NCBI GenBank assembly: GCA_017419405.1
Contig: JAFOLH010000001.1
Span: 496,001-560,000, forward strand
DNA: 64,000 nt
DNA from: Renibacterium sp.
GTDB taxonomy: Bacteria; Actinomycetota; Actinomycetes; Actinomycetales; Micrococcaceae
Direction of reading: 5' to 3'
This document shows positions 11,661 through 59,912 of the stretch, piece after piece. A program made the translations under genes and the position numbers. Position 1 is the stretch's first letter. Every line of letters starts with the position of its first letter. Below the pieces are notes generated by a model that was not told the origin of the DNA, ran no database searches, and saw only the letters and a list, made by a program, of their open reading frames with translations.

Positions 11661-11670
11661 GGCCCTGGTC

Positions 11671-13754: not shown

Positions 13755-13942
13755 TGAGGTCTGTTCTGAACGGAATCGGGATTCGTCGTCGGGCCGGGAT
13801 GCAGGCCCATCCCATTCTCCCACCGCTTGAGTCCGCGGACAAACAGGCGGCGCCCTTGGCGTGCCCGGCCTCGCCTCGGCAGTTCCCGGGCCCGGAACCG
13901 ATAGGATCTTAGGCGAGCAAGCGAATCGGACAAGAGGAACAG

Positions 13943-14674: not shown

Positions 14675-14724
14675 GCCCGGCGGATCAAACGGATTTTGAG
14701 GAAGCATTCAGGAAAGGCAGCAAA

Positions 14725-45288: not shown

Positions 45289-45339
45289 AATGGTTTATTT
45301 AGGCAATGAATTTATCAATTACGTTGGGGGACGTTGAGC

Positions 45340-46698
45340 ATGAAATTCAAGAAAACGCTGATGGGGGCTGCGATCCTCAGTGCCATCGGCTTCATCGGCA
45401 GCAGTAGCCTGACCCAAGCCACTGCCGGAGACATCCAGGCGCCGACGCCTGGAGTCGTGGACGGCATCGACTACACGAATCAGTTCACCATTGGCGAATT
45501 CACCAAGTGGATCTATGCACAGGGCGATGTCGAAAAGATCGGCTATGCCGGCCAAGTCAATATCAACCAAGAAAAACGAACTGAGATCTACTGGAAGGGC
45601 AACAGCCCTTTGATCGAACGGATCAGGGCAGAAGGCCAACGCAGGGGAATCGGGGTCGATTTCAAACCGGCAGTGTTCAGTACCGATGAGCAGATCCGCA
45701 TTGGCAGCGCGATCATGGACCCGGACCAGGTAGGCAAGTTCGCTGCGCAAGGTATTGCCGTGGATAGTGTCATCGGGTTCGCCGGTGTCGATGGCCGGGT
45801 CAAGGTCGTCGGCAACAGCAATGACCAGACGAAGGTTCTCGGGCTGGACCCGACAAAAGCGAAGTCGATCATGAAAACTCTGGTCCGCGCGATCGTCGCG
45901 CCGGTCATCGCCGGTTCAGATGTCCTGGGACTGGCCAACGCTGCTGCCCTTGCCGATCGGGAGATCGATGTCCTCTTCGATGAGCCCGGCTATGGCCCCT
46001 CGGTCAACTACGCGGGGACCCGGGTCGCCAACACGGTGCCGACCTATGCAGGGGCGTTGATCACTGCGGGTAGCGGTTACTGTAGTAGCGGTTTTGCGCT
46101 GCGGGACCGCTCGACCCGTGAGGTCAATCGTTTCACCACGGCTCGGCACTGTCGCGGCACGTATTGGCGTAGTTGGGAAGGCAATAATCAGTTGGGGCGT
46201 TCGATTTCAAATTCGAGCGATGGGGCTGCCCTGCTGATCCAAGGCACCTCGGCTTCGCGGGTCTTCGACGGATCCTGGAGCAACAACAATGGCTACAACA
46301 AGCAGGTCTGGACCGATATCGCGGTCAGGCTCGGTGATTCGGTGTGCACCAGCGGGGCAAACTCCGGTGTGCATTGCAACTTGACCATTGACAACATGAA
46401 CCGGGTGTACGACGACGGTTTTGGCCGATTCAGTACGATCAGCGCCTATAACGCGGGCGGAGGAATAGCCGGTGCCCCTGGTGACAGTGGCGGGCCGGTG
46501 GTCATGCCTTATCAAGGCGAAACCTGGACCGCGGCCGTCGGAATGATTCAAGGCGGAACCCAAGACCGGCAGTGCCGGGCCGGGATCGAGGTGCGGTTAG
46601 ACGGCGGTCCGAATTGGTGCGGCAATAGGGTTTACTTCACGTCCATTCAAACCATCGCCAGTACCTCGACCCATGAGGTGGCGAAAGCGGCAAACTAG
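45340..46698 (+). CDS. Secreted trypsin-like serine protease (S1 family, streptogrisin-like)
   Basis: ATG 45340, nine bases after GGGGG, gives 452 residues; TTG 45334 is two codons upstream. A signal peptide (KKTLMGAAILSAIGFIGSSSLTQATA) is followed by a pro-region of about 210 residues. In the protease domain, TARHCRGTYW near residue 268 supplies His, SSDGAALLIQG near 293 Asp, and GAPGDSGGPVVMP near 380 Ser. Paired Cys residues suggest disulfides, typical of exported S1 proteases. GC content is lower than in surrounding genes and codons are more varied, which suggests acquisition. It converges with the isonitrile synthase, 49 bases apart. Confidence 0.85.
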   Translation: MKFKKTLMGAAILSAIGFIGSSSLTQATAGDIQAPTPGVVDGIDYTNQFTIGEFTKWIYAQGDVEKIGYAGQVNINQEKRTEIYWKGNSPLIERIRAEGQRRGIGVDFKPAVFSTDEQIRIGSAIMDPDQVGKFAAQGIAVDSVIGFAGVDGRVKVVGNSNDQTKVLGLDPTKAKSIMKTLVRAIVAPVIAGSDVLGLANAAALADREIDVLFDEPGYGPSVNYAGTRVANTVPTYAGALITAGSGYCSSGFALRDRSTREVNRFTTARHCRGTYWRSWEGNNQLGRSISNSSDGAALLIQGTSASRVFDGSWSNNNGYNKQVWTDIAVRLGDSVCTSGANSGVHCNLTIDNMNRVYDDGFGRFSTISAYNAGGGIAGAPGDSGGPVVMPYQGETWTAAVGMIQGGTQDRQCRAGIEVRLDGGPNWCGNRVYFTSIQTIASTSTHEVAKAAN

Positions 46699-46747: not shown

Positions 46748-47680
46748 CTAACGGGGCTCGCCGAGTTCGAAGTGGTCGGCCCGTCCGTTCCGCAAACGCA
46801 ACCGAGCGTTCGCCGGAACCTCGTCCCGCCGGATCAGCTTGAGGCTGCCGTCGGCCAGCTTGAGCGGTGCCGAGTGCCAGGGCGTGGTCCACGGGGAATC
46901 CGACTCCAGCAAGCGGAGGCCGAACTTCTCCGAATCCCCGGGCTGCGGGTGGATCGAAAGCCGTACCGCGTCCGGGAATTGCTCCGCCACGATGCCGCCC
47001 CAGGCGATGCTGCGCTGCAGTACTTGGTAGGCCCGACGCCGGCAGTCGCGTTGCAGGGCCGAGCGGGTCCCTTGGTGGCCGACTGAATCTTCGACCAGGA
47101 ATCTGATGATGCCCCGGTACAGCGAGGCCAAAGCCGGGTCCGCGCGTACCTGCTGCCGGAGTTCTTCCAGGCTGGGGCCGTAGTGCTCGATGATCGACTG
47201 CCGCCGGCTATGGTCCATCCGCCCGGGGTAGCGGTCGCGCAGCGAAAAGAATTCCAGGTGCTGCAAACCTTCGGCGCGCGCCGTTTGCCGCAAGTCCTCG
47301 AAATAGGCGTCGATGGCCTCCTGGTCCACACCGATGGCATCGGCGAAAATATGCCCGTCGCTGCAGATCGCCAAACGGACGCCCGCGGGGTGCTCGGCTT
47401 CCATCCGGGCGCACAGAGCATCGAGGAACTGCAGCGAGGCGCGTTCCCCGGCGTCCGGCAGAGCGCCCAAGACTTTGGCCGGGTTGGGGGATTTGCAGGG
47501 GAATCCGGGCAGGGCGAAGCGCAGCCGGTGCTCCGTGCCGGCTACCCGTTCGAGCGCTTCGAGGATCTGTGGAAAATCCTCCGGCCGGCCGGACCGGTTT
47601 GCCTCCGTGGCACGGCGGAACGGCAACAGCAGGTCCAGGATCCGGTGTGCCGGGGAGCGCACGGTTGCTGCTGCGCTCAT
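46748..47680 (-). CDS. Isonitrile (isocyanide) synthase, PvcA/IsnA/DIT1 family
   Basis: ATG 47680 overlaps the P450 stop (ATGA); 310 residues. Diagnostic segments are LPGFPCKSPNPAKVLGALPD near 60-78, RLAICSDGHIFADAIGVDQ near 107-125 and RLSIHPQPGDSEKFGLRLL near 238-256, followed by WTTPWHSAPL. All align by eye with PvcA, IsnA and yeast Dit1. Family members replace the amino group of L-Tyr or L-Trp by an isonitrile using a carbon from ribulose-5-phosphate. The partner here is a P450, as with DIT1/DIT2 and fungal xanthocillin genes, not the Fe/2-oxoglutarate oxygenase PvcB/IsnB. It is last in an eight-gene copper operon; the isonitrile is a plausible copper ligand. Whether Tyr or Trp is used is not visible. 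Confidence 0.9.
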   Translation of the reverse strand: MSAAATVRSPAHRILDLLLPFRRATEANRSGRPEDFPQILEALERVAGTEHRLRFALPGFPCKSPNPAKVLGALPDAGERASLQFLDALCARMEAEHPAGVRLAICSDGHIFADAIGVDQEAIDAYFEDLRQTARAEGLQHLEFFSLRDRYPGRMDHSRRQSIIEHYGPSLEELRQQVRADPALASLYRGIIRFLVEDSVGHQGTRSALQRDCRRRAYQVLQRSIAWGGIVAEQFPDAVRLSIHPQPGDSEKFGLRLLESDSPWTTPWHSAPLKLADGSLKLIRRDEVPANARLRLRNGRADHFELGEPR

Positions 47681-48987
47681 CGGAGCCGTTCCCGGTAGCT
47701 CACCGGAAGATTTTTCAGCCCCCGGGTCAGCACCGCGGCAATCCAGGACGGCGGCTCCGCGGCAGGCACCAAGGCGAGGCCGTCGAGCCGGTCGAAAAGC
47801 CTGCCCAGGCCCAAGGCCAATTGGCTCTGGGCCAAGGCCGCGCCAGGGCAATAGTGCGGGCCGGCACTGAAGCCGAAGTGACTGCTGCGCCGTTGCCGGC
47901 TGGATTTGAGCTGCGCGACGGATTCGGACCGCCCGCCGAAATCCAGCCAGTCGCCGCCGGGCAAGTCCCGATTGGCCGCATTCAGCGCGACGATCACCGA
48001 ATCACCCGCGGGGATCCGGGTTCCCCGAAAATCCGTGTCGACCGTGAAGAAGCGCCAGGTGGCCAGGGCGAAAGCTCCGTCGTAACGGATCAATTCATCG
48101 ATCCACAGCGACCGCGACTCCGGCCGGGAGACGAAATCGTCCCGGGCTTCCGGGTGCTGCAACAAGGCCAGCATCGAGGTCGACAGCTGGTGGGTCACCG
48201 GTTCCTGACCGGCCACCAAAAGCTGGAAGACCAACGAGGAAAGCTGGTCTGCGCTCAAGCTCCCGGCAGCCTGTGCCCGGACCAACCGGGCCAGCAGCCC
48301 GGAGCGCTCCGGCCGGGCGGCGTCAGCGACCACTTCGGCGATGTACGCCTCGAGCTCCCGCAAGAGCCGTTCGTACTCGGGACGCCAGGGGTCGTCCGGT
48401 CCGACCGGCTGCACCACCTTGCCCCAAGCGGGGTCGAAGCCGTCGGCGAGCCGGGGCGGCAAACCGATCGCGAGCGAAAGCACCCGGAAAGGCAGCAGAG
48501 CCATGTATTCCGGAACCAAATCCAGGCCTCCGGAATCGGGGAAGCCATCGATGAGCTGATCGGCGAGATCCGCTATCCGGCCTTCCAATTCCGTTGCTGC
48601 GCGCGCGGAGAACGCGGGTAGGATCAGTTTCCGCATCCGGGCATGCACTTCGCCGTCCTGGTGCAGCAGATGCGACTGCAAACGGGTGTGCTGCGGTTCC
48701 GGCATGATCGAGGCTTTGGCCCGCCATCGCGGATTGCCGACGTCGTGGTTTTTCCGGATGTCCGGATGCTGCAGGAGTTCGGCGGCGGCGTCCGCCCCGG
48801 TGACCAGCCAGGCGTTGACCCCGCTGGGGAAGCGTACCCGGTGCACCGGCCCGTTCCTGGTGAGGTGCCGGAACACCGGGTAGGGATCCTGGACGTAGGC
48901 TGCGCCGAACAGCTGCACCGCGCCTTCGGCATCCCGTTCGAACGGCTCAGCGCGATCGGTCCCGAGCCCGGTCACCGGGCAGCTCAT
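47677..48987 (-). CDS. Cytochrome P450 paired with the isonitrile synthase
   Basis: ATG 48987 overlaps the copper ATPase stop (ATGA); 436 residues, soluble class I type. The haem motif FSAGPHYCPGAALAQ puts the thiolate Cys near residue 378. ELIR is the K-helix ExxR. In the I-helix LLVAGQEPVTHQL near residue 257 the usual acid-alcohol Thr (AGxET) is replaced by Pro. Redox partners are not encoded nearby. It sits between the copper ATPase and the isonitrile synthase with 4-base overlaps on both sides. It probably decorates or couples the aryl isonitrile, forming an alkene, a hydroxylated product or a dimer (inference). Confidence 0.88.
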   Translation of the reverse strand: MSCPVTGLGTDRAEPFERDAEGAVQLFGAAYVQDPYPVFRHLTRNGPVHRVRFPSGVNAWLVTGADAAAELLQHPDIRKNHDVGNPRWRAKASIMPEPQHTRLQSHLLHQDGEVHARMRKLILPAFSARAATELEGRIADLADQLIDGFPDSGGLDLVPEYMALLPFRVLSLAIGLPPRLADGFDPAWGKVVQPVGPDDPWRPEYERLLRELEAYIAEVVADAARPERSGLLARLVRAQAAGSLSADQLSSLVFQLLVAGQEPVTHQLSTSMLALLQHPEARDDFVSRPESRSLWIDELIRYDGAFALATWRFFTVDTDFRGTRIPAGDSVIVALNAANRDLPGGDWLDFGGRSESVAQLKSSRQRRSSHFGFSAGPHYCPGAALAQSQLALGLGRLFDRLDGLALVPAAEPPSWIAAVLTRGLKNLPVSYRERLR

Positions 48988-51311
48988 CGGGACTCCTCGG
49001 CGTCGGCGGAGGCGGGGTCGCCGACTGCCGCCGGGGAGTCGGAGCTCGCCGTGAAGTTGCGCAGCCGCAGGCTGTTGGTCACCACGAAGAGGCTGGACAA
49101 GGACATCGCGGCACCGGCGATGAGCGGATTGAGCAGGCCGAAGGCGGCCAGCGGGATCGCCGCCACGTTGTACACGAAGGCCCACACCAGGTTTCCGCGG
49201 ATGGTGCGCAGGGTGCGTCTGGACAGCACGATCGCATCGGCGACCACGCGCAGGTCCGGACGGATCAAAATGATGTCGGCAGACTTCATCGCGACGTCGG
49301 TGCCGCTCACCATGGCCATGCCCAAATTGGCGGTGGCCAACGCCGCCGCGTCATTGATCCCGTCGCCGACCATCGCAATCCGGCGCCCGGCTGCTTGCAG
49401 ATCCGCCAGAACCTTGGCCTTTTCCGTCGGCAGTACCCCGCCGATCGCCTGTTTCATGCCCAACTGGGCGGCGACGTCGTCTGCGGCGCGCTGCCGGTCC
49501 CCGCTGAGCAGCACCGTGTGCAGGCCCAGTCCGTGCAGCATTCCGACGGCTTCGCCGGCGCCTTTGCGCAGCGAATCCTGCAGCGCGTAGACCGCACGGG
49601 CCACCCCGTCCACGGCCAGGAAGATCAAGGTTCCGGTGGCGTCGTCCAAAGCGGACGGCGGGCGTGGCACGCCACGTTCGGCCAGCAGCGCAGCACTTCC
49701 GACCAGCACTTCTGCGCCCTGGACCACGGCCCGGACGCCTCGGCCAGGCAGCGCGCCGAACTCTTCGGCGAGCGGGGCGCGCAAGCCGTTCTGCTCGGCG
49801 AAGCCGATGATCGCCCGGGCTGTGGGGTGTTCCGAGCCGGCCTCCGCAGCGGCGGCCAGCGCGGTGAGCTGTTCCGGGGTCTGCGGGCCGGCCGGGTCCG
49901 CGCCGGCCGCGACGTCGAACACCGCCATCCGGTGCACGCTCATTTCGCCGGTGGTCAGGGTCCCGGTTTTGTCCAGCACCACGGTGTCGATGCGGCCCGA
50001 AGATTCCAGCGCCTGTTGGCTTTTGATCAGGATGCCCAGCTGGCTGCCGCGGCCCACGCCGACCATCAGGGCCATCGGGGTAGCGAGCCCCAACGCGCAG
50101 GGGCAGGCAATGATCAACACCGAGATCGCGGCGCCGAAGGCCTTCTCCGCGGAGTTTCCGCTCAGCATCCAGGCAGCGAAAACCAGAACCGTGAGTACCA
50201 GGATCACCGGAACGAAAACCCCGACGATCCGCTCCACGAGGGCTTGGATATTGGCCTTGCGAGTCTGGGCGTGTTCTGCGAGCGCGGCCAGTTGGGCCAG
50301 CTGCGTGCTTTCGCCGACCTTGAGCGCACGGACCAGCAGCCGTCCATCGAGGACCACGGTCCCGCCGATCAGCCCGTCGCCGGGCGCTACCGGTTTGGGC
50401 TCCGGTTCGCCGGTCATCGGCGAGGTGTCCACGCCGGCCTGGCCGGAGAGCACTTCGCCGTCGCAGGCGACCCGCTCACCGGGCCGGACCACGAACTGTT
50501 CGCCCACCCGGAGCTGCGAGATCGGAATCAGGGATTCCTGGCCGTCCCGCAGCACCCGGACCTCGCCGACCGCGAGCTTCGCCAGGGCACCGAGCACCCC
50601 GGAAGCCTTGTGCCGCGACTTGGCTTCGAAATAGCGCCCAGCCAGCAGGAAGGTGGTGACGCCGGCAGCCACTTCGAGGTAGATCGAGTCTGCTCCCGGC
50701 GGGGTCTGGCCGAAGCCGACCCAATAGCCCGGAGTGGTTTTGTCCGAGAAGATGATCGCGAAAACCGACCAGAAATACGAGGCCAGCACGCCGAGCGAAA
50801 CCAAGGTGTCCATGCTGAAGCTGCCGTGCCGGAGATTTTTCGCCGCGGCCCGATGGAACGGCCAGGCGCACCAGAAGACCACCGGAGTGGCGATCAGCAC
50901 GCACAGCCAGTCCCAGAACGGAAAGCGCAGTTCCGGCACCAGAGCGAGCACGATCGCGAGGTTGCCCAACGGCAGGGTCAGGACCGCGGCCACAATCAGC
51001 CGGCGCAGCAACATCGCGCTGCGTTCCGGGGCGCTGGTCTCCGGCATCGAAGAAGCGCTCCGGACCACTGCGGTGGCTCCGTAGCCGGCGGCCTCCACGG
51101 CGGCCACGGCCTCCGCGGTCCGTTCCGCGGGCAAGCCACGCAGCACCGCCCGTTCGGTGGCGAAGTTGACCGTTGCCGCCACGCCGTCGAGCTTGCCGAG
51201 TTTCTTCTGGATCCGCACCGCGCAGGCCGAACAGGTCATTCCGGTCAACTGCAGTTCGATCGGCGGGTGTTCCGCCGCCGCGGTCCCGGGTTCGTCCAGC
51301 CGAGTGTCCAT
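48984..51311 (-). CDS. Copper-translocating P1B-type ATPase (CopA/CtpB-like)
   Basis: ATG 51311 lies in TGATG shared with the CtaG stop; GTG 51314 is one codon earlier. 775 residues. An N-terminal metal-binding domain has GMTCSAC near residue 27. The ion-pore motif is ACPCALG near 402, the phosphorylation site DKTGT near 445, then HP in GSEHPTAR and GDGIND near 640. The last helices carry YN (FVYNVAAIPLA) and MSLSS (AAMSLSSLFVV), the P1B-1 Cu(I) signature. It moves Cu(I) out of the cytosol, either for detoxification or to load exported cuproenzymes. Placement with CtaG/CopD resembles mycobacterial ctpB beside Rv0102. Confidence 0.92.
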   Translation of the reverse strand: MDTRLDEPGTAAAEHPPIELQLTGMTCSACAVRIQKKLGKLDGVAATVNFATERAVLRGLPAERTAEAVAAVEAAGYGATAVVRSASSMPETSAPERSAMLLRRLIVAAVLTLPLGNLAIVLALVPELRFPFWDWLCVLIATPVVFWCAWPFHRAAAKNLRHGSFSMDTLVSLGVLASYFWSVFAIIFSDKTTPGYWVGFGQTPPGADSIYLEVAAGVTTFLLAGRYFEAKSRHKASGVLGALAKLAVGEVRVLRDGQESLIPISQLRVGEQFVVRPGERVACDGEVLSGQAGVDTSPMTGEPEPKPVAPGDGLIGGTVVLDGRLLVRALKVGESTQLAQLAALAEHAQTRKANIQALVERIVGVFVPVILVLTVLVFAAWMLSGNSAEKAFGAAISVLIIACPCALGLATPMALMVGVGRGSQLGILIKSQQALESSGRIDTVVLDKTGTLTTGEMSVHRMAVFDVAAGADPAGPQTPEQLTALAAAAEAGSEHPTARAIIGFAEQNGLRAPLAEEFGALPGRGVRAVVQGAEVLVGSAALLAERGVPRPPSALDDATGTLIFLAVDGVARAVYALQDSLRKGAGEAVGMLHGLGLHTVLLSGDRQRAADDVAAQLGMKQAIGGVLPTEKAKVLADLQAAGRRIAMVGDGINDAAALATANLGMAMVSGTDVAMKSADIILIRPDLRVVADAIVLSRRTLRTIRGNLVWAFVYNVAAIPLAAFGLLNPLIAGAAMSLSSLFVVTNSLRLRNFTASSDSPAAVGDPASADAEESR

Positions 51312-53362
51312 CACTGCTCTCCTTGCCGGGCGGCGTCGCGATTCGACTGCTCGGGTTGCGGCCGGTTGCGGTCGGAAAGCGCCGCCAGCATGTCGTTGTA
51401 GTTGTCCAGGCTGTCGTCCAATCCCTGATCACCCCGCCGGTCCTTGCGTTTGGCCTCGCGTTGATCGGATCTGGACCATTGGGTGAGCAAGGCGATCACG
51501 ACCACGATCAGCGGCAATTCGCCGGCTGCCCAGGCCACTCCGCCGCCCAGGTATTGGTCGGCCTTGAAATCGGTGTTCCAATCCGGTTGCAGGGAACGGT
51601 AGAAGTTTTCCCCGATGATCGTGGTCGAAGACATCACCGCGACCGCGAAGAAGGCGTGGAACGGCATTGCGGCGAGGGTGAAACCCAGTTTGCCGATGTA
51701 GGGCATCGGGCGGGGCGCGCGGTCGATGCCGATCACGATCCAGTAGAAGAGGTAGCCGGAAATGATGAAATGCAGGTTCATCGCCTGGTGCGCCCAGTGA
51801 TAGCGCATGCCGAGTTCGAACAGCGGCGAGAAATACAGCGCGTAGTAGGAGCCGACGAAGATCGCGAAGACCAGGAGCGGATTGGTCAGGAAGAGCGAGA
51901 TCTTCGAATGCATCAGGGCATTGATCCATTCCCGCGGACCGCTGGGCGCACCGGGCTTGGCCGGGCGCAAGGCGCGCAGTGCCAAGGTGACCGGACCGCC
52001 GAGCACCAGGAGCACCGGGGCCAGCATGTTCAGCCCCATATGCCCCATCATGTGCAGACCGAAAGATCCAGGCGAGCGTTCCGCCCAGACCGATGAGGTG
52101 AAATAGTAGACCGCGAGCCAACCGAGCAGCCAGCTGATGGTCCGGCCCTTGCTCCAGACATCGCCGCGATTGCGCAGGGTGCGCACGCCCAGCAAGTAGA
52201 GCAGCACCGCGATGATCGCAATGCTGCTGAACAACACGTTGGCGCGGCCGGGCAACAACCAGCCGATGAAGCTGCGCGCTCCATCGATGGAAAAGCCGAG
52301 GAAGTTCTCCTGGGTGCTCTGCACCAGCAGGTAGCGCGGCGGGATCGTCCGTTGCAGGGCGAGCAACGCGCCGAGGAAGACTGCGCCCAAGCCCAGCAGT
52401 GCGGTCAGCCGCCAGCGATAGCAGGCCGGGACCTTGGCCTGCTCGGCCATGGCCCGGTTGAACTGCCGGGCATTGGACCAGGCCAGCAACGCCGAGCCGG
52501 CGGCGGCGAGCAGCGCGACCAGGAAAATCGTTCCGTAGCTGGAATCGGTGGGGGCATTTCCGGCCAGGCCTTGGTAGGCCACGGCAGCGTAGCCCACGAG
52601 CGCGACGCCGGCGCAGATCCAGGACATGACGTGGAACCGCCGGAACCCCTGTGCGCTGAGCTTTCCACCAGCGGCCAAGAACCAGTACACACCGAGCAGG
52701 CTGCTGAGCCAGAGCAGCGCGGCTGGTACGGCGAAGCCCGCCGCATCGGAGGCGAAATCATGGTCGGCACCGACCGAAACCTGGCCGACCAGCACAGTGA
52801 GCAAGACCGCCGAGCAGAGCAGCACGAGCGAGACGAACCGGCTGACCCAGGTCTGCCACAACAACAGGGCCGGGACGATCACCGCTGCGCACAGTGCGGC
52901 GAACACCCAAGCCTGGGCTGCCTGGGTGGTGTCCAGGAAGACCATGAAACTGCTGGAGACCACCCAGTTGAGCGGGACTCCGTTGTTGTCCGCGGCGATG
53001 AAACCGATGAGCAGTAGACTGCTCAAGCCCCAGACCACGGCGAAGCCGGCGGCACGCCGGGCCGCCGCCCGGCCGGAATCCCCAGCGGCATAGGCCGGAC
53101 CGCCGAAGAAGCAGAGCAGTCCCAGCTGGGCGAGCGTGGCCACCGCGCCGAGCCACGCGACGGTCCGCAACACCGAGGTTGCCACGGCGGTGAATACGCC
53201 TGGATAGCCGCGGTTCAACGAAGCGTAGAACTCCTCGCCCTGCAACAGCGGAAGGAGCAAGGCGAGCAGGATCAGTGCGCCGGCGACGCCGGCCGGCAAT
53301 GCCGGATGCGGCCGGATTTTGGGCCGCGGCAAGCCGGTGCGGTCGTTCGGGAGCGCGTTCAT
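51311..53362 (-). CDS. CopD-CtaG fusion membrane protein
   Basis: 683 residues, about 14-16 helices. The N-terminal half (about 1-380) is CopD-like, with helices around RTVAWLGAVATLAQLGLLCFF. The C-terminal half is a caa3_CtaG domain: GLHMMGHMGLNMLAPVLLVLGGP near residue 430, YFSPLFELGMRYHWAHQAMNLHFIISGYLFYW near 510 and AMPFHAFFAVAVMSS near 560. Met- and His-rich faces there suit Cu handling. A long acidic/basic tail ends it. CtaG-type proteins assist copper supply to cytochrome c oxidase. The start overlaps the ABC ATPase by 4 bases. The same fusion (Rv0102) neighbours the isonitrile peptide genes of M. tuberculosis. Confidence 0.88.
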   Translation of the reverse strand: MNALPNDRTGLPRPKIRPHPALPAGVAGALILLALLLPLLQGEEFYASLNRGYPGVFTAVATSVLRTVAWLGAVATLAQLGLLCFFGGPAYAAGDSGRAAARRAAGFAVVWGLSSLLLIGFIAADNNGVPLNWVVSSSFMVFLDTTQAAQAWVFAALCAAVIVPALLLWQTWVSRFVSLVLLCSAVLLTVLVGQVSVGADHDFASDAAGFAVPAALLWLSSLLGVYWFLAAGGKLSAQGFRRFHVMSWICAGVALVGYAAVAYQGLAGNAPTDSSYGTIFLVALLAAAGSALLAWSNARQFNRAMAEQAKVPACYRWRLTALLGLGAVFLGALLALQRTIPPRYLLVQSTQENFLGFSIDGARSFIGWLLPGRANVLFSSIAIIAVLLYLLGVRTLRNRGDVWSKGRTISWLLGWLAVYYFTSSVWAERSPGSFGLHMMGHMGLNMLAPVLLVLGGPVTLALRALRPAKPGAPSGPREWINALMHSKISLFLTNPLLVFAIFVGSYYALYFSPLFELGMRYHWAHQAMNLHFIISGYLFYWIVIGIDRAPRPMPYIGKLGFTLAAMPFHAFFAVAVMSSTTIIGENFYRSLQPDWNTDFKADQYLGGGVAWAAGELPLIVVVIALLTQWSRSDQREAKRKDRRGDQGLDDSLDNYNDMLAALSDRNRPQPEQSNRDAARQGEQ

Positions 53363-54189
53363 GCACAGGCCTCAGTGATCTGGGCGGCGGGGTTGATGCG
53401 GGCTGCCGGGCCGAGCGGTGCGCACTGGATGCCGGCTTTGCCGGTGAGCCGGTTCCGGGTCAGCTCGGCTGCGACGCCGAAGACCAAGCGCATGTTCTCC
53501 GGGTTGAGCACCGTTTCCGGCGGGCCGGCGTCGTAGATCTTTCCCTGGTGCATCAGCAGCAGATGATCGGCGTGCGCCAGCGCCTGATCCAAATTGTGCA
53601 GGGCCAGCAAGACGGAGCGGCCGGTCGCTCCGGAGACGAAGCCGTCCAGCAAAGCCAGCAAGTCCAATTGCGCGGCGATGTCGAGGTGGTTGGTGGGCTC
53701 GTCGAGGATCAGCAGCGGTGCATTCTGGCACAGCGCCCGGGCCAACAGCACCCGTTGCCGCTCGCCACCGGACAGCGAAGCGAAATCCCGTCCCGCCAAT
53801 CCGGTGCAGCCGGCGTCCTGGAAGGCCTGGTCGATCAGCGCCCGGTCGGCCGCGTCGAGGCCGCTCAGGGCGCGGGCGAAGGGCGTCCGGCCCATGCTGA
53901 CCACTTCGTAAGCGGTGAAGCCCAGGCCTTGGCTCTGCTGCTGCGGCAAGACAGCGCGGCTTCTCGCGGCCGCGCGTGCGCTCGACTGCCAGATGTCGCT
54001 GCCATCGATTAGCACCGAACCGTGGTTCGGCTTGAGCGCCCGGTAGGCGGCCCGGAGCAGGCTGCTTTTGCCCGAGCCATTGGGTCCGACCACCGCGGTG
54101 ATCGACCCGGGTTGCAGCGTGAGCGTGGCATCGTCGAGGATCGCCCGATGGCCGATGCGGACCGTCACGTTGTTCAATTGGAGACTCAT
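53359..54189 (-). CDS. FecE-like ABC importer ATPase
   Basis: 276 residues. Walker A GPNGSGKSSLL near residue 36, Q-loop PQQQSQGLGFTAYEVVSMGR near 82-100, signature SLSGGERQRVLLARAL near 138 and Walker B LILDEPTNHLDIAAQLDL near 157. These features, with the C-terminal GPPETVLNPENMRLVFG, are those of siderophore/B12-type importers (FecE, BtuD, FhuC). It overlaps the permease by ATGA upstream and the CopD-CtaG gene downstream. With the permease and lipoprotein it forms a complete type II importer. Confidence 0.9.
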   Translation of the reverse strand: MSLQLNNVTVRIGHRAILDDATLTLQPGSITAVVGPNGSGKSSLLRAAYRALKPNHGSVLIDGSDIWQSSARAAARSRAVLPQQQSQGLGFTAYEVVSMGRTPFARALSGLDAADRALIDQAFQDAGCTGLAGRDFASLSGGERQRVLLARALCQNAPLLILDEPTNHLDIAAQLDLLALLDGFVSGATGRSVLLALHNLDQALAHADHLLLMHQGKIYDAGPPETVLNPENMRLVFGVAAELTRNRLTGKAGIQCAPLGPAARINPAAQITEACA

Positions 54190-55286
54190 ACTGCGCGTTC
54201 CTCTTTGCGGGTGCGGAGCAGCCAGAGGAAGAATGGTGTTCCCAAGGCTGCGGTGAAAATGGTCAGCGGATATTCGTTCGGCGGATCGATCAACCTGGAA
54301 GCCAAATCGATGAGCACCAGGAAAATAGCTCCGCCGGCCAAACTCAGCGGCAAGAGCTTCCGGTAGTCGGAGAATCCGAGCATCCGGAGTCCGTGCGGGA
54401 TGATCAAGCCGACGAAGCCGACCGCGCCGGCCACGGTGACCGCCACGGCGGTCAGCAAGGCGCTGGCGACGAGCAATTGCCAGCGCAGCGAGTTGACGTT
54501 GATTCCGAGGGCGACGGCGTCGTCGTCGCCCAGGGCCAGGGCGTTGAGTTGCCGGGACCGGGCCACCAGGAACAGTGCGGTGATTCCGGTGACCACGGCC
54601 AGTACCGGCAGCTGCGACCAGGTGGCGCCCGCGGTGCTGCCGAGCATCCAGAACAAAATGCCCCGGACCTGGGCCGGGTCCACATGCAGTTGGATCAGCG
54701 TGGTTCCGGCCATCGCGGCCTGGCCGAGCGCGACGCCGGCCAGTACGATCCGGTATCCGGAGAGTTTTCCGGAGCGTTGCGCCAAGAACACGAGCAGGAG
54801 CAAGGTCAGCAGGGCGCCCACGAAAGCCGCGGCGCTCACCCCGAGCCCGGCCAATGCCGTGCTGCCCAGTGCCATGACCGAGATCGCCCCCAATGACGAT
54901 CCCGACGAGACACCGATCACGAACGGATCGGCCAATGGATTGCCCACCACGCCTTGCAGGACTGCGCCGGCCATCGCCAAGGCCGCTCCGACCAAGGCGG
55001 TGAGCAGGACCCGGGGGAGCCGCAACTGCCAGATGATCTGCTGGTTCAGCAGCATGCCCGGATCGGCAGCCGCCGCGCCCTGCCCGCTCAGGTTGCGGCC
55101 GATCACCGCGAAAATCTCCCCGGGCGGGACGGCGACCTGGCCCAATGCGGTGGCCAGCATGATGCTGCCCGCCAGGCCGATCAGCAGCAAAGCCGCAGCC
55201 AGCCCCGCTTTGCCCACCGGACGGTGGGCGAAGCGGACGGCCGCAGACGTTGCGCCGACGGCTTCCGGCGGTCTAGTTGAACGCAT
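54186..55286 (-). CDS. FecCD-family ABC importer permease
   Basis: 366 residues with about ten helices. Family motifs RLPRVLLTALVGAALAMAGAVLQGVVGNPLADPFVIGVSSG near 95-135 and AGAVGFVGLIIPHGLRMLGF near 290 are intact; the latter includes the coupling helix to the ATPase. A single gene probably acts as a homodimer. The start overlaps the binding lipoprotein by 14 bases. The substrate would be a metal chelate or corrinoid. In this operon a copper-isonitrile complex is the attractive candidate (inference). Confidence 0.9.
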   Translation of the reverse strand: MRSTRPPEAVGATSAAVRFAHRPVGKAGLAAALLLIGLAGSIMLATALGQVAVPPGEIFAVIGRNLSGQGAAAADPGMLLNQQIIWQLRLPRVLLTALVGAALAMAGAVLQGVVGNPLADPFVIGVSSGSSLGAISVMALGSTALAGLGVSAAAFVGALLTLLLLVFLAQRSGKLSGYRIVLAGVALGQAAMAGTTLIQLHVDPAQVRGILFWMLGSTAGATWSQLPVLAVVTGITALFLVARSRQLNALALGDDDAVALGINVNSLRWQLLVASALLTAVAVTVAGAVGFVGLIIPHGLRMLGFSDYRKLLPLSLAGGAIFLVLIDLASRLIDPPNEYPLTIFTAALGTPFFLWLLRTRKEERAV

Positions 55287-56385
55287 CTGGGTGTGCGACC
55301 TTGGCGATCTTTTCGATGGCGATGGCGTTCTGCGGTCCCAGGTATGCGCTATCCGCCAACGTCACATAGCGGTTGTTTTTGGCAGCCGACCACTGCGGAT
55401 AGGCGGCGAAGATCTTCGCCGCCTCGGCGGCGAGGTCCTCGCCGGCGCTGAATCCGCCGAGGACCAGCACCTCGACGTTGGCCGCAGCCAGCTGCTCGGC
55501 ACTCAGGCTCCGGGTGAAGGTCCGGTCCTTCCCGGAGAACGCGTTGCTGGTTCCGGCGGCCTCCAACAACGAGTCATAACTGCTTCCGGTCAGGACCGCC
55601 GGCAATCCGCTGGAGTTCATCATGGACATCCCGGGGACCGCGATCAGCACTTGCGGTTTGTCGTTGTTCCCGGGCTTGGTGGCAGCTTCCTTCTGCACTG
55701 CCGCCTGGACCTTTTGCACGCGTTGATCGATCTGGTCCGAGAGCTCGAGAGCCTTCGCCTCGACGTCGAAGACATGGCCGAGCAAAGCGTAGTAGGTCTT
55801 GGCCGAAGTCCAGGACGCTTGGGCCAGATCCTGCTTTTCCGCGTCCGTGGCATCGGTTTTGCCGAGTGCGCACTGCGCGGGATTGACCAGGGTTTTGGCT
55901 CCGATCGCGGCCAACTGTTCCCGTGTCGCCATGCCCTTGCCGGCATCGAAAGCGGCCGACGAGTTGGCCAGCACCAGATCGGGCTTGAGGCTGAGCAGGG
56001 TCTCGGCGGGGATGTCCTTGCCGGTCGGCGTGTTTCCGTTGGCCGAAGGCAAGGCATTGATCTTCTCCGCCATGCCCGGCTCGTCGTAGACCCCGTACCG
56101 TTGCGCATTGGCGATCACGGTTTTGTCCAGGCCCAACGCGATGACGCTCTGCACCTCTGCGATGGATTGCCCGTTCAGGATCACCACTCGGCTCGGCGCC
56201 TGGTCGAAGGTTTGGCTCAGACCGCAATTTTCTACGGTATAGGGATAACTGGTGGCCTTTGCCGACTCAGTCGGCGGAGCCGGGGAATTGCCGGGCGAAT
56301 AGCCGGCGGTGCTGCCGCAGGCGGCAACGGCCAGCAAGGTTGCGATGGCGCCGACGGCGATTGCCGAACGGGAAAGGGGATGCAT
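55273..56385 (-). CDS. FecB/BtuF-type substrate-binding lipoprotein
   Basis: ATG 56385 after GGAGAA gives 370 residues. The signal peptide ends in the lipobox LLAVAACGS near residue 22. The domain has two lobes joined by a long helix (AQASWTSAKTYYALLGHVFDVEAKALELSDQIDQ), the clamp form. VILNGQSIAEVQSVIALGLDKTVIA is near 70, KPDLVLANSS near 135 and VEVLVLGGFSAGEDLAAEA near 315. A loop PGMSMMNSSGLP near 250 carries three Met residues, possibly relevant to copper. It is the external receptor of the importer encoded by the next two genes. Confidence 0.88.
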   Translation of the reverse strand: MHPLSRSAIAVGAIATLLAVAACGSTAGYSPGNSPAPPTESAKATSYPYTVENCGLSQTFDQAPSRVVILNGQSIAEVQSVIALGLDKTVIANAQRYGVYDEPGMAEKINALPSANGNTPTGKDIPAETLLSLKPDLVLANSSAAFDAGKGMATREQLAAIGAKTLVNPAQCALGKTDATDAEKQDLAQASWTSAKTYYALLGHVFDVEAKALELSDQIDQRVQKVQAAVQKEAATKPGNNDKPQVLIAVPGMSMMNSSGLPAVLTGSSYDSLLEAAGTSNAFSGKDRTFTRSLSAEQLAAANVEVLVLGGFSAGEDLAAEAAKIFAAYPQWSAAKNNRYVTLADSAYLGPQNAIAIEKIAKVAHPDAFN

Positions 56386-56562
56386 GGGTTCTCCGAAAGA
56401 AGCTGAGCAGAATGGCTGGCAACCGATGCCGGGGTGCTGCAGAACGCAGGCCCGGCCGGTTGGTCGGAAACTCGGAACCCGCCGCAGGGCGGGATCCGCA
56501 GACTGCCGTGGCAGGAACTGCACGGCTGATCGACCGGTGGCTGGAAGGCGCCGAACCGGTGG
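56386..56562 (-). other. Leader region before the binding lipoprotein with one hairpin
   Basis: This 177-base gap is the only sizeable one inside the operon. A 10-bp stem with one mismatch (56474-56483 with 56488-56497, loop GCAG) is present. I looked for a cobalamin riboswitch because of the importer type and did not find its conserved core. An internal promoter or an attenuator remains possible. Confidence 0.4.
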
Positions 56563-57171
56563 CTAGTGCGTGGTGAGCAGCCGAGGAGGTCCGCGGTATT
56601 GCAGCCGCAGGAAAACGTCACGTGAGTTGAATGCAGCCAGCCGGGTGCGGGCCGCGACCCGCGGATGGACTTCCTGAGCCGGCAGCAGCGCGGCGAGCAG
56701 CCGGAACAATGGGCGCAGCAGCAGTGCCAGGATTCCGACGAACCGCCGGGCGACCCGCTCGCCTCGATGGAAGGCGGCGATGGTCAGCAGCGCGGCGCCC
56801 AGGTGCGCGGCGAGCATAGTGAGATCCATCCCCGCCACCGCCGGTTCGGCGACCCCGGCCGGAACCCCGAAGAACGCATGGTGATGACCCGCGGGCACGG
56901 CGCTGGACGGGCCGAAACCAGCGTCGCCGAGCAGCGCGAAAAGCCCGTGGAAAATCACTTGGGAAAGCAGGACCGCGACGGTCAGTCTGGGCAAGCTGAG
57001 CGTCTTCCCGGCCAGCGCGGTGCAGACGAGGGCGGACAGCACGAGGGCGAGCAAAAAGGCGATGCCGAGTGGGAAGGCGCCTCCGCCGATGGTGTGCGAA
57101 CAAGCAGCGACGGTGGTGGCGAACAGGGCTGCGGTCCAGCCGCGGACGAATCGCGCACTGTGTGCGTTCAT
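56563..57171 (-). CDS. Small His-containing membrane protein, first gene of the copper operon
   Basis: 202 residues from ATG 57171, nine bases after GGAGGAGG. About four to five helices: FVRGWTAALFATTVAACSHTIGGG, AFLLALVLSALVCTALAG, LTVAVLLSQVIFHGLFALLGD and DLTMLAAHLGAALLTIAAF. The loop after helix three contains GHHHAFFG, and helices hold further His and Met residues, suiting transient copper binding. Its C-terminal tail is basic. Family unknown to me by name. I associate similar actinobacterial proteins with copper loci, at low confidence. A -10 box and a 12-base palindrome lie directly upstream. Confidence 0.7.
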   Translation of the reverse strand: MNAHSARFVRGWTAALFATTVAACSHTIGGGAFPLGIAFLLALVLSALVCTALAGKTLSLPRLTVAVLLSQVIFHGLFALLGDAGFGPSSAVPAGHHHAFFGVPAGVAEPAVAGMDLTMLAAHLGAALLTIAAFHRGERVARRFVGILALLLRPLFRLLAALLPAQEVHPRVAARTRLAAFNSRDVFLRLQYRGPPRLLTTH

Positions 57172-57203: not shown

Positions 57204-57221
57204 CGTTCCGGAACGATTCTA
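57204..57221 (-). promoter_or_regulatory. Candidate promoter/operator of the copper-isonitrile operon
   Basis: On the minus strand a -10-like TAGAAT (57221-57216) runs straight into the perfect palindrome CGTTCCGGAACG (57215-57204), which would cover the transcription start. The ATG of the first gene is 33 bases further on. No good -35 is visible, which suits a regulated promoter. The rest of the 57172-57360 gap shows nothing else. The regulator is not in the window. Confidence 0.45.
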
Positions 57222-57360
57222 CACGGCGTCGAAATCGAGCCGGTCCGTGAAATCCAGTCTATCCGTGCTGCCGGCGATGTCCGGCAAGGGCTACGTCACG
57301 GATGGCCGTACCGGGACTCATTTGACCGAAATCCAGCGTCGCTGCGCACCGGGGCCGGAC

Positions 57361-58305
57361 TCAGCCGGCCACGGTGCGGAAACCCAGGTTCCCGCTGGCC
57401 GAATCGGGCGTATTCGAGCTGCGCGCGGCCACCCGGTAGCGGTTGCAATAGGAGGCATGGCAGAGATAGCTGCCGCCCCGCATCACCCGGGCGATTCCGC
57501 TTTCCGGACCGGCCGGATTGCGGTCCGGACTTTGCGCGTAATAATCCGCCGAGTACCAGTCGGCGCACCATTCCCAGACATTTCCGGCCATGTTCCGAAG
57601 CCCGAGGCCGTTGGCCGGGAAACTGTGCGCCGGTGCGGTCCCCAGGTAGCCGTCCTCGAACGTATTGCCGGAAGGAAAAGTCCCTTGCCAAATATTGCTG
57701 TGCTGCTCGCCGCCGGGGCAGAGTTCGTCCCCCCAGGGGTAGCGCGCCCCGGCGAGGCCGCCGCGGGCGGCGAATTCCCACTCGGCTTCGGTGGGCAAGC
57801 GGCGGCCGGCCCATCGGCAGTAGGCCATCGCGTCATGCCAGCTGACCTGGACCACTGGGTGGTCCGGAATGCTTCGCCAGTCCGAGCGGCTGCCGGCCGG
57901 ATGGCGCCAGTCGGCGCCGCGTACGGTCAGCCACCAGGGGGCGCCGCCGACGGCGTGGAGCAGTTCTTCCGGGCTGCCGTCGAAGAGCAGATGGAACACC
58001 GCCGAGTAGCCGAAGCGTTCCGATTCGGTCCGGTACCCGGTTGCGCCGGCGAAGGCGGCGAATTGCGAGTTCGTCACGGCGTGCAGATCGATCGCGAACG
58101 GATCCAGACTGACCTGGTGCACCGGCAGCTCGCCGTCCGCCGGGTAGCCTTCGGCGAAGGCGTCGCCCATGGCGAAACTGCCGCCGGGCACCTCCGCCGC
58201 CGGATGCCCGGCCAGGTCTGGCGCAGCGGCCGTCATCCCGTCCGGTTCCGGGACAACCCGAGGGTCGAGGGGGCGGTTCGGGGATTCCGGGGTGCAGCAG
58301 CCCAT
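57361..58305 (-). CDS. Formylglycine-generating enzyme (FGE/SUMF1 family)
   Basis: 314 residues from ATG 58305 (AAAGG upstream). The fold is shown by GGSFAMGDAFAEGYPADGE near residue 42, HPVVQVSWHDAMAYCRWAGRRLPTEAEWEFAARGG near 150-183 and NMAGNVWEWCADWY near 235. The active-site pair is in RGGSYLCHASYCNRYR, Cys near residues 282 and 287, which bind Cu(I) in aerobic actinobacterial and human enzymes. It oxidises the Cys of CxPxR motifs in sulfatases to formylglycine using O2. The divergent sulfatase is the evident client. A start MGCC is common in actinobacterial FGEs. It lies 189 bases upstream of the copper operon on the same strand. Confidence 0.93.
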   Translation of the reverse strand: MGCCTPESPNRPLDPRVVPEPDGMTAAAPDLAGHPAAEVPGGSFAMGDAFAEGYPADGELPVHQVSLDPFAIDLHAVTNSQFAAFAGATGYRTESERFGYSAVFHLLFDGSPEELLHAVGGAPWWLTVRGADWRHPAGSRSDWRSIPDHPVVQVSWHDAMAYCRWAGRRLPTEAEWEFAARGGLAGARYPWGDELCPGGEQHSNIWQGTFPSGNTFEDGYLGTAPAHSFPANGLGLRNMAGNVWEWCADWYSADYYAQSPDRNPAGPESGIARVMRGGSYLCHASYCNRYRVAARSSNTPDSASGNLGFRTVAG

Positions 58306-58328
58306 GATGCCTTTCGAGGGACGAGTGT

Positions 58329-58343
58329 TGTCATAATATGACA
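58329..58343. promoter_or_regulatory. 15-base palindrome between FGE and sulfatase genes
   Basis: TGTCATA-A-TATGACA is a perfect inverted repeat in the 128-base divergent gap. Size and sequence resemble GntR/FadR-type operators, but no regulator gene is adjacent. It could co-regulate the two genes. Confidence 0.5.
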
Positions 58344-58433
58344 GAGTCTGATTGAGATGTTCGATTTTGCATCATGAAATGTCGCGAGGCGGTGGCCGGA
58401 CGGCGATCCACGGAAAGTCTGGGAGCGCAATCG

Positions 58434-59912
58434 ATGAATGGACGCAAATCTCCGAATGTACTCCTGATCTGTGTGGACCAATGGCGCGGTGACTGCCTGT
58501 CCAGCCAAGGGCATCCGGTGGTGAAAACGCCGTACCTGGATTTGTTGGCCCGGGACGGGGTGAACTTCGATGCCGCCTATTCGGCGACGCCCACTTGCGT
58601 GCCGGCCCGGGTGGCCCTGATGACCGGGCAGTCGCAAGAACGGCACGGCCGGGTGGGCTACCAGGACCTGGTGCCGTTCCAGGAAGCGCACCCGGTTCCG
58701 ACGCTTGCCGGATCGTTCCGCGATGCCGGGTATCAAACCCAATGCGTGGGCAAAATGCACGTCTACCCGGAGCGCGCCAGATTGGGTTTCGACGACATCC
58801 GGTTGCACGACGGGTTCCTGCACGCTGCGCGACGCCGTGCCGAACGGGATCTGGCATCGATCGACGACTATTTGCCCTGGCTGCGGAAACAGCCCGGGAT
58901 GACGGCGACCGAGGACTACACCGACAATGGGCTCAACTGCAACAGCTACACCGCCCGGCCCTGGGACAAGCCGGAGCCGACGCATCCGAGCAACTGGGTG
59001 GTCACCGAGGCGATCGACTGGCTCCACCGGCGCGACACCACGGCGCCGTTCTTCCTGTATCTGTCCTTCCATCGCCCGCATCCGCCGTTCGATCCGCCGC
59101 AATGGGCGTTCGAGCAGTATCTCGACGCGCCCGTGGCGGATCTGCCGATGGGGGACTGGCTCGATGACTATGCCGAGTTCCGGGCCGACGGCGACGCCGA
59201 TGCGGTAGTCGGTGCCGCAGACCCGGAGAGCCACCGCCGCGCGGTCGCCGGCTACTACGGGCATATGAGCCATATCGACGGCCAGATCGAACGGTTCCTC
59301 GCCGCGCTGGAGAATTTCCAACTGCGCGAAGAGACGATCGTGGTCTTCACCTCGGATCACGGCGACATGATGGGCGACCACGGGATGTACCGCAAAGGCC
59401 AGCCCTATCAGGGCTCGGCGCGGATCCCGCTGATCATCTCGGTGCCAGGCGCGACTACTGGGCTGCGCCGGCACGTCGCAGACGTCGTGGAACTGCGGGA
59501 CCTGATGCCGACGCTGCTGGACGCGGCCGGAATCCCGGTACCGGATTCGGTGGACGGAAAATCCCTGTTGCCGATCGTCCTGGACCCCGTTGCGGGACCG
59601 GTGCGCGAGTATCTGCACGGTGAGCACGTCCTGCTCGGCCAGTCATTGCAATGGCTCACCGATGGGCGACGCAAGTTCGTCTGGCTCTCCGGCAGTGGCC
59701 GCGAGCAGTTCTTCGATCTGGAGCAGGACCCGCAGGAGCTGCGCAATCTGGCCGCGGATCCCGACCGTGCGGAAGAAGTCGGCCAGTGGCGGGATCGGCT
59801 GATCGAGGCACTCGAGGGCCGGGAAGAGGGATTCGTCGCGGACGGCGGATTGCTGGCCGGCCGGCCGGTTCACCCGACCGCGGCACGGATCCGGGGGCTT
59901 GCCCGAAGCTGA
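58434..59912 (+). CDS. Cys-type sulfatase (type I, FGly-dependent)
   Basis: ATG 58434, nine bases after GGGAG, gives 492 residues. The N-terminal metal motif NVLLICVDQWRGD supplies Asp ligands. The modification site TPTCVPARVALMTG has Cys at residue 55 in the CxPxR context that FGE converts to formylglycine. KMHV near 105, HRPHPPFDP near 220 and FTSDHGDMMGDHGMYRKG near 305-322 complete the site. No signal peptide, so it acts in the cytoplasm on an imported sulfate ester, or is exported folded. The substrate is unknown; an aryl or alkyl sulfate is likely. It ends at a strong terminator. Confidence 0.92.
   Translation: MNGRKSPNVLLICVDQWRGDCLSSQGHPVVKTPYLDLLARDGVNFDAAYSATPTCVPARVALMTGQSQERHGRVGYQDLVPFQEAHPVPTLAGSFRDAGYQTQCVGKMHVYPERARLGFDDIRLHDGFLHAARRRAERDLASIDDYLPWLRKQPGMTATEDYTDNGLNCNSYTARPWDKPEPTHPSNWVVTEAIDWLHRRDTTAPFFLYLSFHRPHPPFDPPQWAFEQYLDAPVADLPMGDWLDDYAEFRADGDADAVVGAADPESHRRAVAGYYGHMSHIDGQIERFLAALENFQLREETIVVFTSDHGDMMGDHGMYRKGQPYQGSARIPLIISVPGATTGLRRHVADVVELRDLMPTLLDAAGIPVPDSVDGKSLLPIVLDPVAGPVREYLHGEHVLLGQSLQWLTDGRRKFVWLSGSGREQFFDLEQDPQELRNLAADPDRAEEVGQWRDRLIEALEGREEGFVADGGLLAGRPVHPTAARIRGLARS

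What the first reader, a model, noticed from the sequence alone, without database searches (positions are those of the whole stretch)
46748..57171. Eight-gene operon joining isonitrile synthesis, metal-chelate import and copper handling: probable chalkophore system
In the sequence: genes at 56563, 55273, 54186, 53359, 51311, 48984, 47677 and 46748 are all on the minus strand; six of seven junctions overlap by 1-14 bases, most as ATGA. They encode a His-containing membrane protein, FecB/FecC/FecE-type importer, CopD-CtaG fusion, P1B-1 copper ATPase, P450 and PvcA-family isonitrile synthase. Established: isonitriles bind Cu(I); diisonitrile chalkophores are known in Streptomyces and M. tuberculosis, and fungal xanthocillin affects copper supply. 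Inference: this operon makes an aryl isonitrile, takes its copper complex back through the importer, and sends copper to oxidase or exported enzymes. I know of no described bacterial system with this gene set.
Basis: partly seen in the sequence, partly recalled or inferred. Interest (0 to 1): 0.93.

Follow-up and report, generated by a model that had tools for sequence, protein, structure and literature searches.

The report
One-operon isonitrile copper-scavenging system
Eight neighbouring bacterial genes, found in the same order in two related species, are predicted to make an isonitrile molecule that would fetch scarce copper, bring it back into the cell and pass it to respiration, and they carry a DNA site like one that likely switches on a copper-free backup respiratory enzyme.

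Summary
The eight minus-strand genes are real; six of seven junctions overlap (five by 4 bases). The order H-FecB-FecC-FecE-CtaG-P1B ATPase-P450-PvcA recurs at 46-81% identity per gene in Acaricomes phytoseiuli and in a genome that is very probably Renibacterium salmoninarum. In the genus, PvcA and this FecB co-occur (4 of 4 with, 0 of 3 without). In 79 loci outside the family, mostly Streptomyces and Kitasatospora, FecC lies near PvcA in 70 and a Cu-ATPase in 38, far above the background of 15 genomes. The chalkophore reading is well supported, but hazimycins are already published as actinobacterial chalkophores (title seen only). New here: one compact make-import-deliver operon, no amidating enzyme found, and predicted control: an inverted repeat over the operon's -10 is one mismatch from three perfect copies between a BlaI/CopY-type repressor gene and cytochrome bd genes in the same genome. 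One relative has importer, CtaG and ATPase but no synthase, as a copper-chelate pirate would. Product, copper binding and regulation are untested; the operon has no exporter gene.

The parts
46748..47680 (-). PvcA/DIT1-family isonitrile synthase (310 aa)
   Evidence: PF05141 233 bits; profile of 24 relatives matches PvcA 3e59 and isonitrile synthases 9dhm/9dh4
47677..48987 (-). cytochrome P450 (436 aa), predicted coupling partner
   Evidence: PF00067; haem motif FSAGPHYCPG; a P450 at least 48% identical near pvcA in 78 of 80 loci; in the other two (L011, L025) the contig begins within 365 bases upstream of pvcA
48984..51314 (-). P1B-1 type Cu(I) ATPase (776 aa)
   Evidence: TIGR01511 478 bits; CSAC, CPC, DKTGT, YN, MSLSS; best solved relative copper efflux ATPase 3rfu
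51311..53362 (-). CtaG-type membrane protein (683 aa), predicted copper delivery to cytochrome aa3
   Evidence: PF09678 272 bits, residues 388-632; a separate copy in the same genome (C14) is 34% identical
53359..54189 (-). FecE-type ABC ATPase (276 aa)
   Evidence: PF00005
54186..55286 (-). FecC-type permease (366 aa)
   Evidence: PF01032 285 bits
55273..56385 (-). FecB-type lipoprotein binding protein (370 aa from the likely ATG; 416 aa from GTG 56523)
   Evidence: PF01497; lipobox; 65-67% identical over nearly full length in two relatives
56563..57171 (-). H: small membrane protein (202 aa) of an unnamed family with conserved His
   Evidence: invariant Q71, H75, H123, G137, E138, RGPP in 19 chosen sequences; Met/His-rich loop in 14 of 16 members from outside the family; five long helices predicted, mean pLDDT 75
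57216..57233 (-). predicted operator TTCGACGCCGTGTAGAAT overlapping a -10-like TAGAAT, 44 bases before the H start codon
   Evidence: one mismatch from TTCTAC-N5-GTAGAA, the sequence found between blaI and cydA; none in 100 shuffles of the window; like sites at the operon start in L005 and L006
53214..53230 (+). second one-mismatch operator-like site inside the CtaG gene
   Evidence: role unknown, may be chance

Best explanation
These eight same-strand genes likely form one copper-starvation operon predicted to make a tyrosine-type isonitrile chalkophore, which would carry copper back in through FecB/FecC/FecE, and predicted to hand that copper through the P1B ATPase and CtaG to cytochrome aa3. 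Predicted steps: (1) under copper shortage a BlaI/CopY-type repressor, tied to a membrane peptidase, would release the operon and the copper-free cytochrome bd genes together. (2) PvcA would turn tyrosine into an isonitrile; the P450 would couple two units into a diisonitrile, as proposed for fungal xanthocillin and recalled for hazimycins. (3) The product would leave by an unknown exporter and bind Cu(I). (4) FecB would catch the complex and FecC/FecE import it. (5) Freed copper would be pumped by the ATPase to the outer face of the membrane, where CtaG, with H as a likely copper-holding partner, would load the oxidase. Shown: gene content, order, conservation, linkage, operator-like sequences. 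Inferred: every chemical, transport and regulatory step.
For: Order kept in Acaricomes and the probable R. salmoninarum genome at 46-81% identity per gene. PvcA and this FecB co-occur: 4 of 4 with, 0 of 3 without, in the genus. Other families: of 80 loci (79 outside the family) FecE hits in 73, FecC in 71, Cu-ATPase in 39; L086 (Amycolatopsis) has FecB/C/E, P450, PvcA, a 56%-identical ATPase and a 40%-identical CtaG. Background in 15 genomes that I chose, about 136 Mb: 148 FecCD matches predict 0.3 loci with one, 14 of 15 seen; 43 Cu-ATPases over cut-off predict 0.1, seen in 7 of 15 within 10 kb and 10 of 15 within 12 kb, the latter distance set after looking. Clustered loci also hold PCu(A)C genes (15 of 82) and H relatives (47 of 82), whose loop is Met/His-rich in 14 of 16 aligned. 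pvcA under constraint: dN/dS 0.13 between two strains. Operator shared with blaI-cydAB. Mtb chalkophores supply copper to bcc:aa3 while cytochrome bd compensates (PMC12140626 passages).
Against: No exporter and no regulator gene in the operon. The importer's best NCBIfam hits are F420-0, cobalamin and siderophore transporters, all below cut-off. CtaG is near PvcA in only 2 of 80 loci, and in the two phylum-sample loci with P450 and importer neither CtaG nor a Cu-ATPase is within 10 kb, so delivery to the oxidase is a local feature. Three other CtaG-ATPase loci (L108, L109, L132) have no operator within one mismatch. In Mtb ctpB was not differentially expressed in the sigC mutant in low copper, and its role in export is left open; cydB there is under SenX3/RegX3. 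How Cu(I) would leave a tight isonitrile complex is unknown. No expression or metabolite data.
Confidence: 0.75

Rival explanations
1. The isonitrile is an antibiotic or copper-enzyme poison for competitors, and the ATPase, CtaG and H protect the producer's own oxidase; import is incidental.
For: Products of a PvcA-like (isnAB) rhabduscin cluster inhibit phenoloxidase (PMC6386379, title and abstract start in a listing). A copper-free oxidase would help a producer of an oxidase poison, and its genes share the operator type.
Against: An uptake system with a lipoprotein binding protein is in the same overlapping gene run, and FecC is near the pair in 71 of 80 relatives. G080 has importer, CtaG and ATPase without PvcA, which fits uptake better than self-protection.
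Confidence: 0.13
2. The importer carries another ligand (iron siderophore, haem or a cobalamin-like molecule) and is joined to isonitrile genes by chance or for general metal stress.
For: FecC resembles F420-0 and BtuC permeases and FecB resembles EitA, all below cut-off; FecB's solved relatives include haem binders, weakly.
Against: FecB is absent from the three genus members without PvcA; in G080 the importer sits next to CtaG and a Cu-ATPase and its FecB promoter has a similar repeat (three mismatches from the cyd sites). No cobalamin riboswitch was found in 44.5-60.3 kb.
Confidence: 0.08
3. The operon is for copper detoxification: the isonitrile sequesters excess copper and the ATPase exports it.
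For: P1B-1 ATPases commonly export copper (established knowledge).
Against: An importer in the same gene run is hard to reconcile; the shared operator lies before cytochrome bd genes, expected when the copper oxidase fails rather than when copper is in excess. In Mtb the nrp cluster was needed for low, not high, copper (PMC9600254 passages).
Confidence: 0.04

Closest known systems
Hazimycin-type diisonitrile chalkophores (Matsuda et al. 2024, J Antibiot; only the title seen, in the reference list of PMC11085572; cluster content recalled)
   Same: PvcA-family synthase with an orthologous P450; Streptomyces/Kitasatospora loci that I take to be of this type also have FecC/FecE and often a Cu-ATPase near
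   Different: AsnB-type amidotransferase, present in 24 of 82 clustered loci, is not in the operon and gave no match in the genome; here all parts are one overlapping gene run with CtaG; no ECF sigma or PCu(A)C gene in it, and no PCu(A)C match in the genome
Diisonitrile lipopeptide (nrp) chalkophores of mycobacteria and SF2768 of Streptomyces thioluteus
   Same: isonitrile chemistry and copper-starvation role; ctpB, a P1B copper ATPase gene, lies near ppe1-nrp and both rise on sigC induction (PMC7924339 passages); supplies bcc:aa3 with cytochrome bd as backup (PMC12140626 passages)
   Different: isonitrile made with ScoD/ScoE-type enzymes (PMC5974471 passages) and an NRPS, not by PvcA; no FecBCE importer in the passages read
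Fungal xanthocillin (xan) and crm isocyanide systems
   Same: isocyanide synthase family with a P450 (XanG, proposed for dimerisation), copper-responsive (PMC5974471 passages)
   Different: ICS-dioxygenase or ICS-NRPS proteins of fungi; no ABC importer of this type described in the passages read
Actinobacterial CopD-CtaG fusion CtiP and SigC copper-deprivation response of Corynebacterium glutamicum (recalled; paper not held)
   Same: CtaG-type protein for cytochrome aa3 copper supply
   Different: recalled as not in an isonitrile operon; CopD half not confirmed here

Membership tests
PvcA/DIT1 isonitrile synthase family (PF05141) | profile match over the curated cut-off and near full-length match to solved synthases | tested here: met
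   233 bits against 26.4; 3e59, 9dhm, 9dh4 matched over about 300 positions
PvcA/DIT1 isonitrile synthase family (PF05141) | L-tyrosine isonitrile synthase equivalog NF045653 | tested here: not met
   226.7 bits against a cut-off of 600; so the substrate (Tyr or Trp) is not settled
Hazimycin-type chalkophore cluster | PvcA plus orthologous P450 | tested here: met
   P450 48-54% identical to partners outside the family; Micrococcaceae sequences monophyletic in both trees, midpoint-rooted
Hazimycin-type chalkophore cluster | AsnB-type amidation enzyme (recalled as part of the cluster) | tested here: not met
   absent from the operon; no match in the own genome with the L058 protein (the tool warns that an empty answer without a positive control shows nothing)
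Hazimycin-type chalkophore cluster | diisonitrile product that binds copper | not testable with these tools
   needs chemistry
nrp/ScoE-type diisonitrile lipopeptide cluster | NRPS with ScoD/ScoE-type enzymes in the cluster | tested here: not met
   none of the eight proteins matches such families
P1B-1 Cu(I) ATPase | TIGR01511 over cut-off, CPC, YN and MxxSS motifs | tested here: met
   478 against 397 bits; motifs
CopD-CtaG fusion (CtiP-like) | C-terminal Caa3_CtaG domain | tested here: met
   PF09678 residues 388-632
CopD-CtaG fusion (CtiP-like) | N-terminal CopD domain | tested here: not met
   no CopD match at E<=10
BlaI/CopY regulon | operator like the repressor's own upstream sites | tested here: met
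   one mismatch from TTCTAC-N5-GTAGAA at the promoter; perfect copies between blaI and cydA
BlaI/CopY regulon | repressor binding and copper or respiration response | not testable with these tools
   needs experiment

The most novel reading that the evidence does not exclude
One BlaI/CopY-type repressor throws a respiratory switch: when copper runs out and the haem-copper oxidase fails, it opens both the copper-free cytochrome bd genes and a self-contained operon that makes, re-imports and delivers a PvcA-type isonitrile chalkophore; relatives such as G080 keep only the import-and-delivery half and pirate the chalkophores of others.
Probability: 0.45. Interest if true: 0.85.

Novelty: new variant of a known kind. 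Interest (0 to 1): 0.72.

Why it matters
If true, bacteria reached isonitrile copper scavenging by two different chemistries (PvcA/P450 here, NRPS/ScoE in mycobacteria) and coupled both to the same target, the actinobacterial cytochrome aa3 with cytochrome bd as backup. It offers an importer, a candidate regulator with its operator, and candidate delivery proteins, so the open question of how a copper-isonitrile complex is taken up and unloaded becomes testable. Open reading frames for all eight genes in the probable genome of R. salmoninarum, a fish pathogen, hint that copper hunger may matter there too.

Tried and rejected
Rfam search for a riboswitch or other RNA in 44.5-60.3 kb: only a tRNA reached its gathering score. 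The single-sequence scan of genome contigs found no relative; the alignment scan did. Fold search of H: 12 matches, none with E<=0.001, so no known fold is claimed. A phylum sample gave PvcA in 4 of 396 genomes: own; two genomes of one other family, with P450 and FecB/C/E near but no CtaG or Cu-ATPase within 10 kb; and G482, whose 43%-identical PvcA has none of the other seven genes on its 13-kb contig. The diverged pvcA of strain G003 was checked: identity falls from about 98% to about 80% near 47.83 kb, inside the P450 3' end, and stays low through pvcA; the frame is open, so it is read as an allele swap. A shared 9-mer search among promoters gave nothing; the inverted repeat was seen by eye and then tested with the pattern taken from blaI promoters. 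The third protein search, second structure job and viral scans were not used.

Count notes: the 80 loci are the best 80 of 342, mostly Streptomyces and Kitasatospora, and include Acaricomes. The 82 loci are these plus L005 and L006, so Acaricomes counts twice (L005 = L010); the ORF finder is rough, and only one member per cluster was scanned with Pfam. Some Cu-ATPase and FecE hits are weak or cut by the locus edge. The operator count left out L131 (the blaI-cyd locus) and L007.
Full report
Observation. The eight minus-strand ORFs are present at the given coordinates; five junctions overlap by 4 bases, one by 14, and the H-FecB junction is a gap. Families: PvcA/DIT1, P450, P1B Cu-ATPase, Caa3_CtaG, ABC ATPase, FecCD permease, Peripla_BP_2; the first gene, H, has none.

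Conservation in the genus. PF05141 is found in 4 of 7 genomes of the genus and in none of the others of 295 family genomes, a sample drawn from a larger group. In L005 (Acaricomes phytoseiuli, the same place as the named record L010) and L006 (G004, contig of 3,155,250 bases, very probably Renibacterium salmoninarum: protein P0003 of that name has a longest contig of 3,155,228 bases and is 65% identical to the window protein) all eight genes follow in the same order; L007 (same species) shows seven before the fetched stretch ends. In L006 the FecC/FecE, FecE/CtaG, ATPase/P450 and P450/PvcA frames can overlap by 4 bases as here. The three genus members without PvcA have no FecB match; their CtaG matches are distant (listed best ones 32-36% identical). 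292 of 295 family genomes have some CtaG match; besides the four with PvcA only G196, G225, G106, G080 and a second G003 copy score over 400 bits, so the operon's CtaG is a dedicated paralogue.

Parts without the pair. The four other family genomes with a close CtaG were read: G196, G225 and G106 have CtaG next to a P1B ATPase (57-58% identical), without the importer or PvcA within the 20 kb. G080 has CtaG and ATPase, and FecB, FecC and FecE on the other strand, with a BlaI/CopY-type repressor (PF03965) and a membrane peptidase between them, and no PvcA match. CtaG-ATPase thus looks like a copper module to which importer and synthase are joined here. G080 may import copper chelates that it does not make.

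Wider linkage. The alignment scan of genome contigs gave 342 relatives; the best 80, Acaricomes included, were kept. By tblastn with the window proteins, a P450 hit is near 79 of 80 (78 at 48% identity or more; the contigs of the other two begin within 365 bases upstream of pvcA), FecE 73, FecC 71, Cu-ATPase 39, FecB 15, CtaG 2, H 1. Rough ORF clustering of 82 loci adds FecB-like proteins in 65, an ECF sigma factor in 54 (its second-best NCBIfam hit is SigC, below cut-off), H relatives in 47, AsnB in 24, an MFS transporter in 20 and PCu(A)C in 15 (one member of each of these, FecB apart, scanned with Pfam, where the H relative had no match). Control: in 15 of these genomes, which I picked, there are 148 FecCD matches and 43 Cu-ATPases over cut-off in about 136 Mb. 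By chance 0.3 FecCD-bearing loci would be expected and 14 of 15 were seen; for the ATPase 0.1 would be expected and 7 of 15 were seen within 10 kb, 10 of 15 within 12 kb. In a phylum sample 4 of 396 genomes have PvcA; besides the own genome, two of one other family have P450 and FecB/C/E near but neither CtaG nor a Cu-ATPase within 10 kb, and the fourth (43% identical PvcA) has none of the other genes. PvcA and P450 trees both keep the four Micrococcaceae sequences together (support 0.92 and 1.0).

H. The window H matches a profile of the clustered relatives (29.7 bits, E 6e-10 in a small set). In 19 chosen sequences a Gln, two His, GE and RGPP are invariant and a third His nearly so. The loop before the fourth helix is 16-38% Met plus His in 14 of 16 members from outside the family, 10-11% in the two others, and 8-11% in the three Micrococcaceae. 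A profile search found 1616 relatives at E<=0.001 among 7997 scored; the 120 listed carry no Pfam domain. AlphaFold gives five long helices at mean pLDDT 75 and no convincing PDB match. A copper-holding membrane protein is the inference.

Control of expression. Upstream of H lies TTCGACGCCGTGTAGAAT (57233-57216), with like sequences at the operon start in L006 and L005 and at the CtaG and, less exactly, FecB promoters of G080. In the own genome a BlaI/CopY-type gene and a peptidase gene face cydA-cydB-cydDC across three perfect TTCTAC-N5-GTAGAA sites (Pfam of BlaI, CydA, CydB and peptidase; the cydDC name rests on place and sequence only). A blaI | one to three perfect sites | cydA layout is in 8 of 8 genomes searched, the seven of the genus and G080. 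At one mismatch, 6 hits occur in 241,482 positions of the window and nine loci: the operon starts in window, L005 and L006, the CtaG start in G080, a place 28-44 bases inside the called CtaG frame of G196 (its true start may lie further on), and one inside the window CtaG gene. None is in L108, L109, L129, L130 or L132, although L108, L109 and L132 also hold CtaG and ATPase. Shuffles of the window give none. The loci were chosen for copper and oxidase genes, so this is not a genome-wide test. The genome has one COX1 match and no PCu(A)C match.

Known work. In M. tuberculosis ctpB lies near the ppe1-nrp operon and both rise on sigC induction, though ctpB did not differ in low copper (PMC7924339 passages); chalkophores keep bcc:aa3 working and cytochrome bd compensates (PMC12140626 passages); a copper-starved sigC mutant raises cytochrome bd genes, rv1305 and atpE are predicted BlaI targets, and cydB is listed under SenX3/RegX3 (PMC7924339 passages). 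Fungal xanthocillin uses an isocyanide synthase and perhaps a P450 to dimerise (PMC5974471 passages). Hazimycins are published as actinobacterial chalkophores (title in the reference list of PMC11085572; paper not held); that their cluster has PvcA, P450 and AsnB is my recollection and fits part of the Streptomyces loci. That makes the window operon a new variant of a known kind, not a new kind.

Verdict. Chalkophore function is the best reading (0.75). Shown: genes, order, linkage, operator-like sites. Not shown: product, copper binding, uptake, export route, regulation.

Noticed in passing
window 46761-47840 against L007: Two strains of the same species are about 98% identical through most of the P450, then about 80% from inside its 3' end through pvcA: an apparent pvcA allele swap with both frames open.
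   Followed up: partly
L106 (G080) 6573-15254: Importer, CtaG and Cu-ATPase with a BlaI/CopY repressor and peptidase, but no PvcA match in the genome: possible chalkophore pirate.
   Followed up: partly
L132 (G003) 6900-12941: A further CtaG plus P1B ATPase cluster with a BlaI-type repressor, a peptidase and a small heavy-metal-binding-like protein in the same species; the ATPase was not scanned with Pfam.
   Followed up: partly
L131 7855-14353: blaI and peptidase genes face cydA-cydB-cydDC across three tandem perfect inverted repeats, a likely autoregulated respiratory switch.
   Followed up: yes
L129 10174-10190: A two-mismatch operator-like site lies just before the COX2 gene (10216) of the own genome; may be chance.
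   Followed up: no
window 53214-53230: Operator-like site inside the CtaG coding sequence.
   Followed up: no
window 57361-59912: A formylglycine-generating enzyme gene next to a divergent sulfatase gene, just upstream of the operon.
   Followed up: no
window 45334-46698: ORF with a GDSGGPV serine-protease-like motif (recalled motif) but no Pfam match, converging on pvcA.
   Followed up: no
L120 (G004): The blaI-like match in the probable R. salmoninarum genome crosses a stop codon; described only.
   Followed up: no
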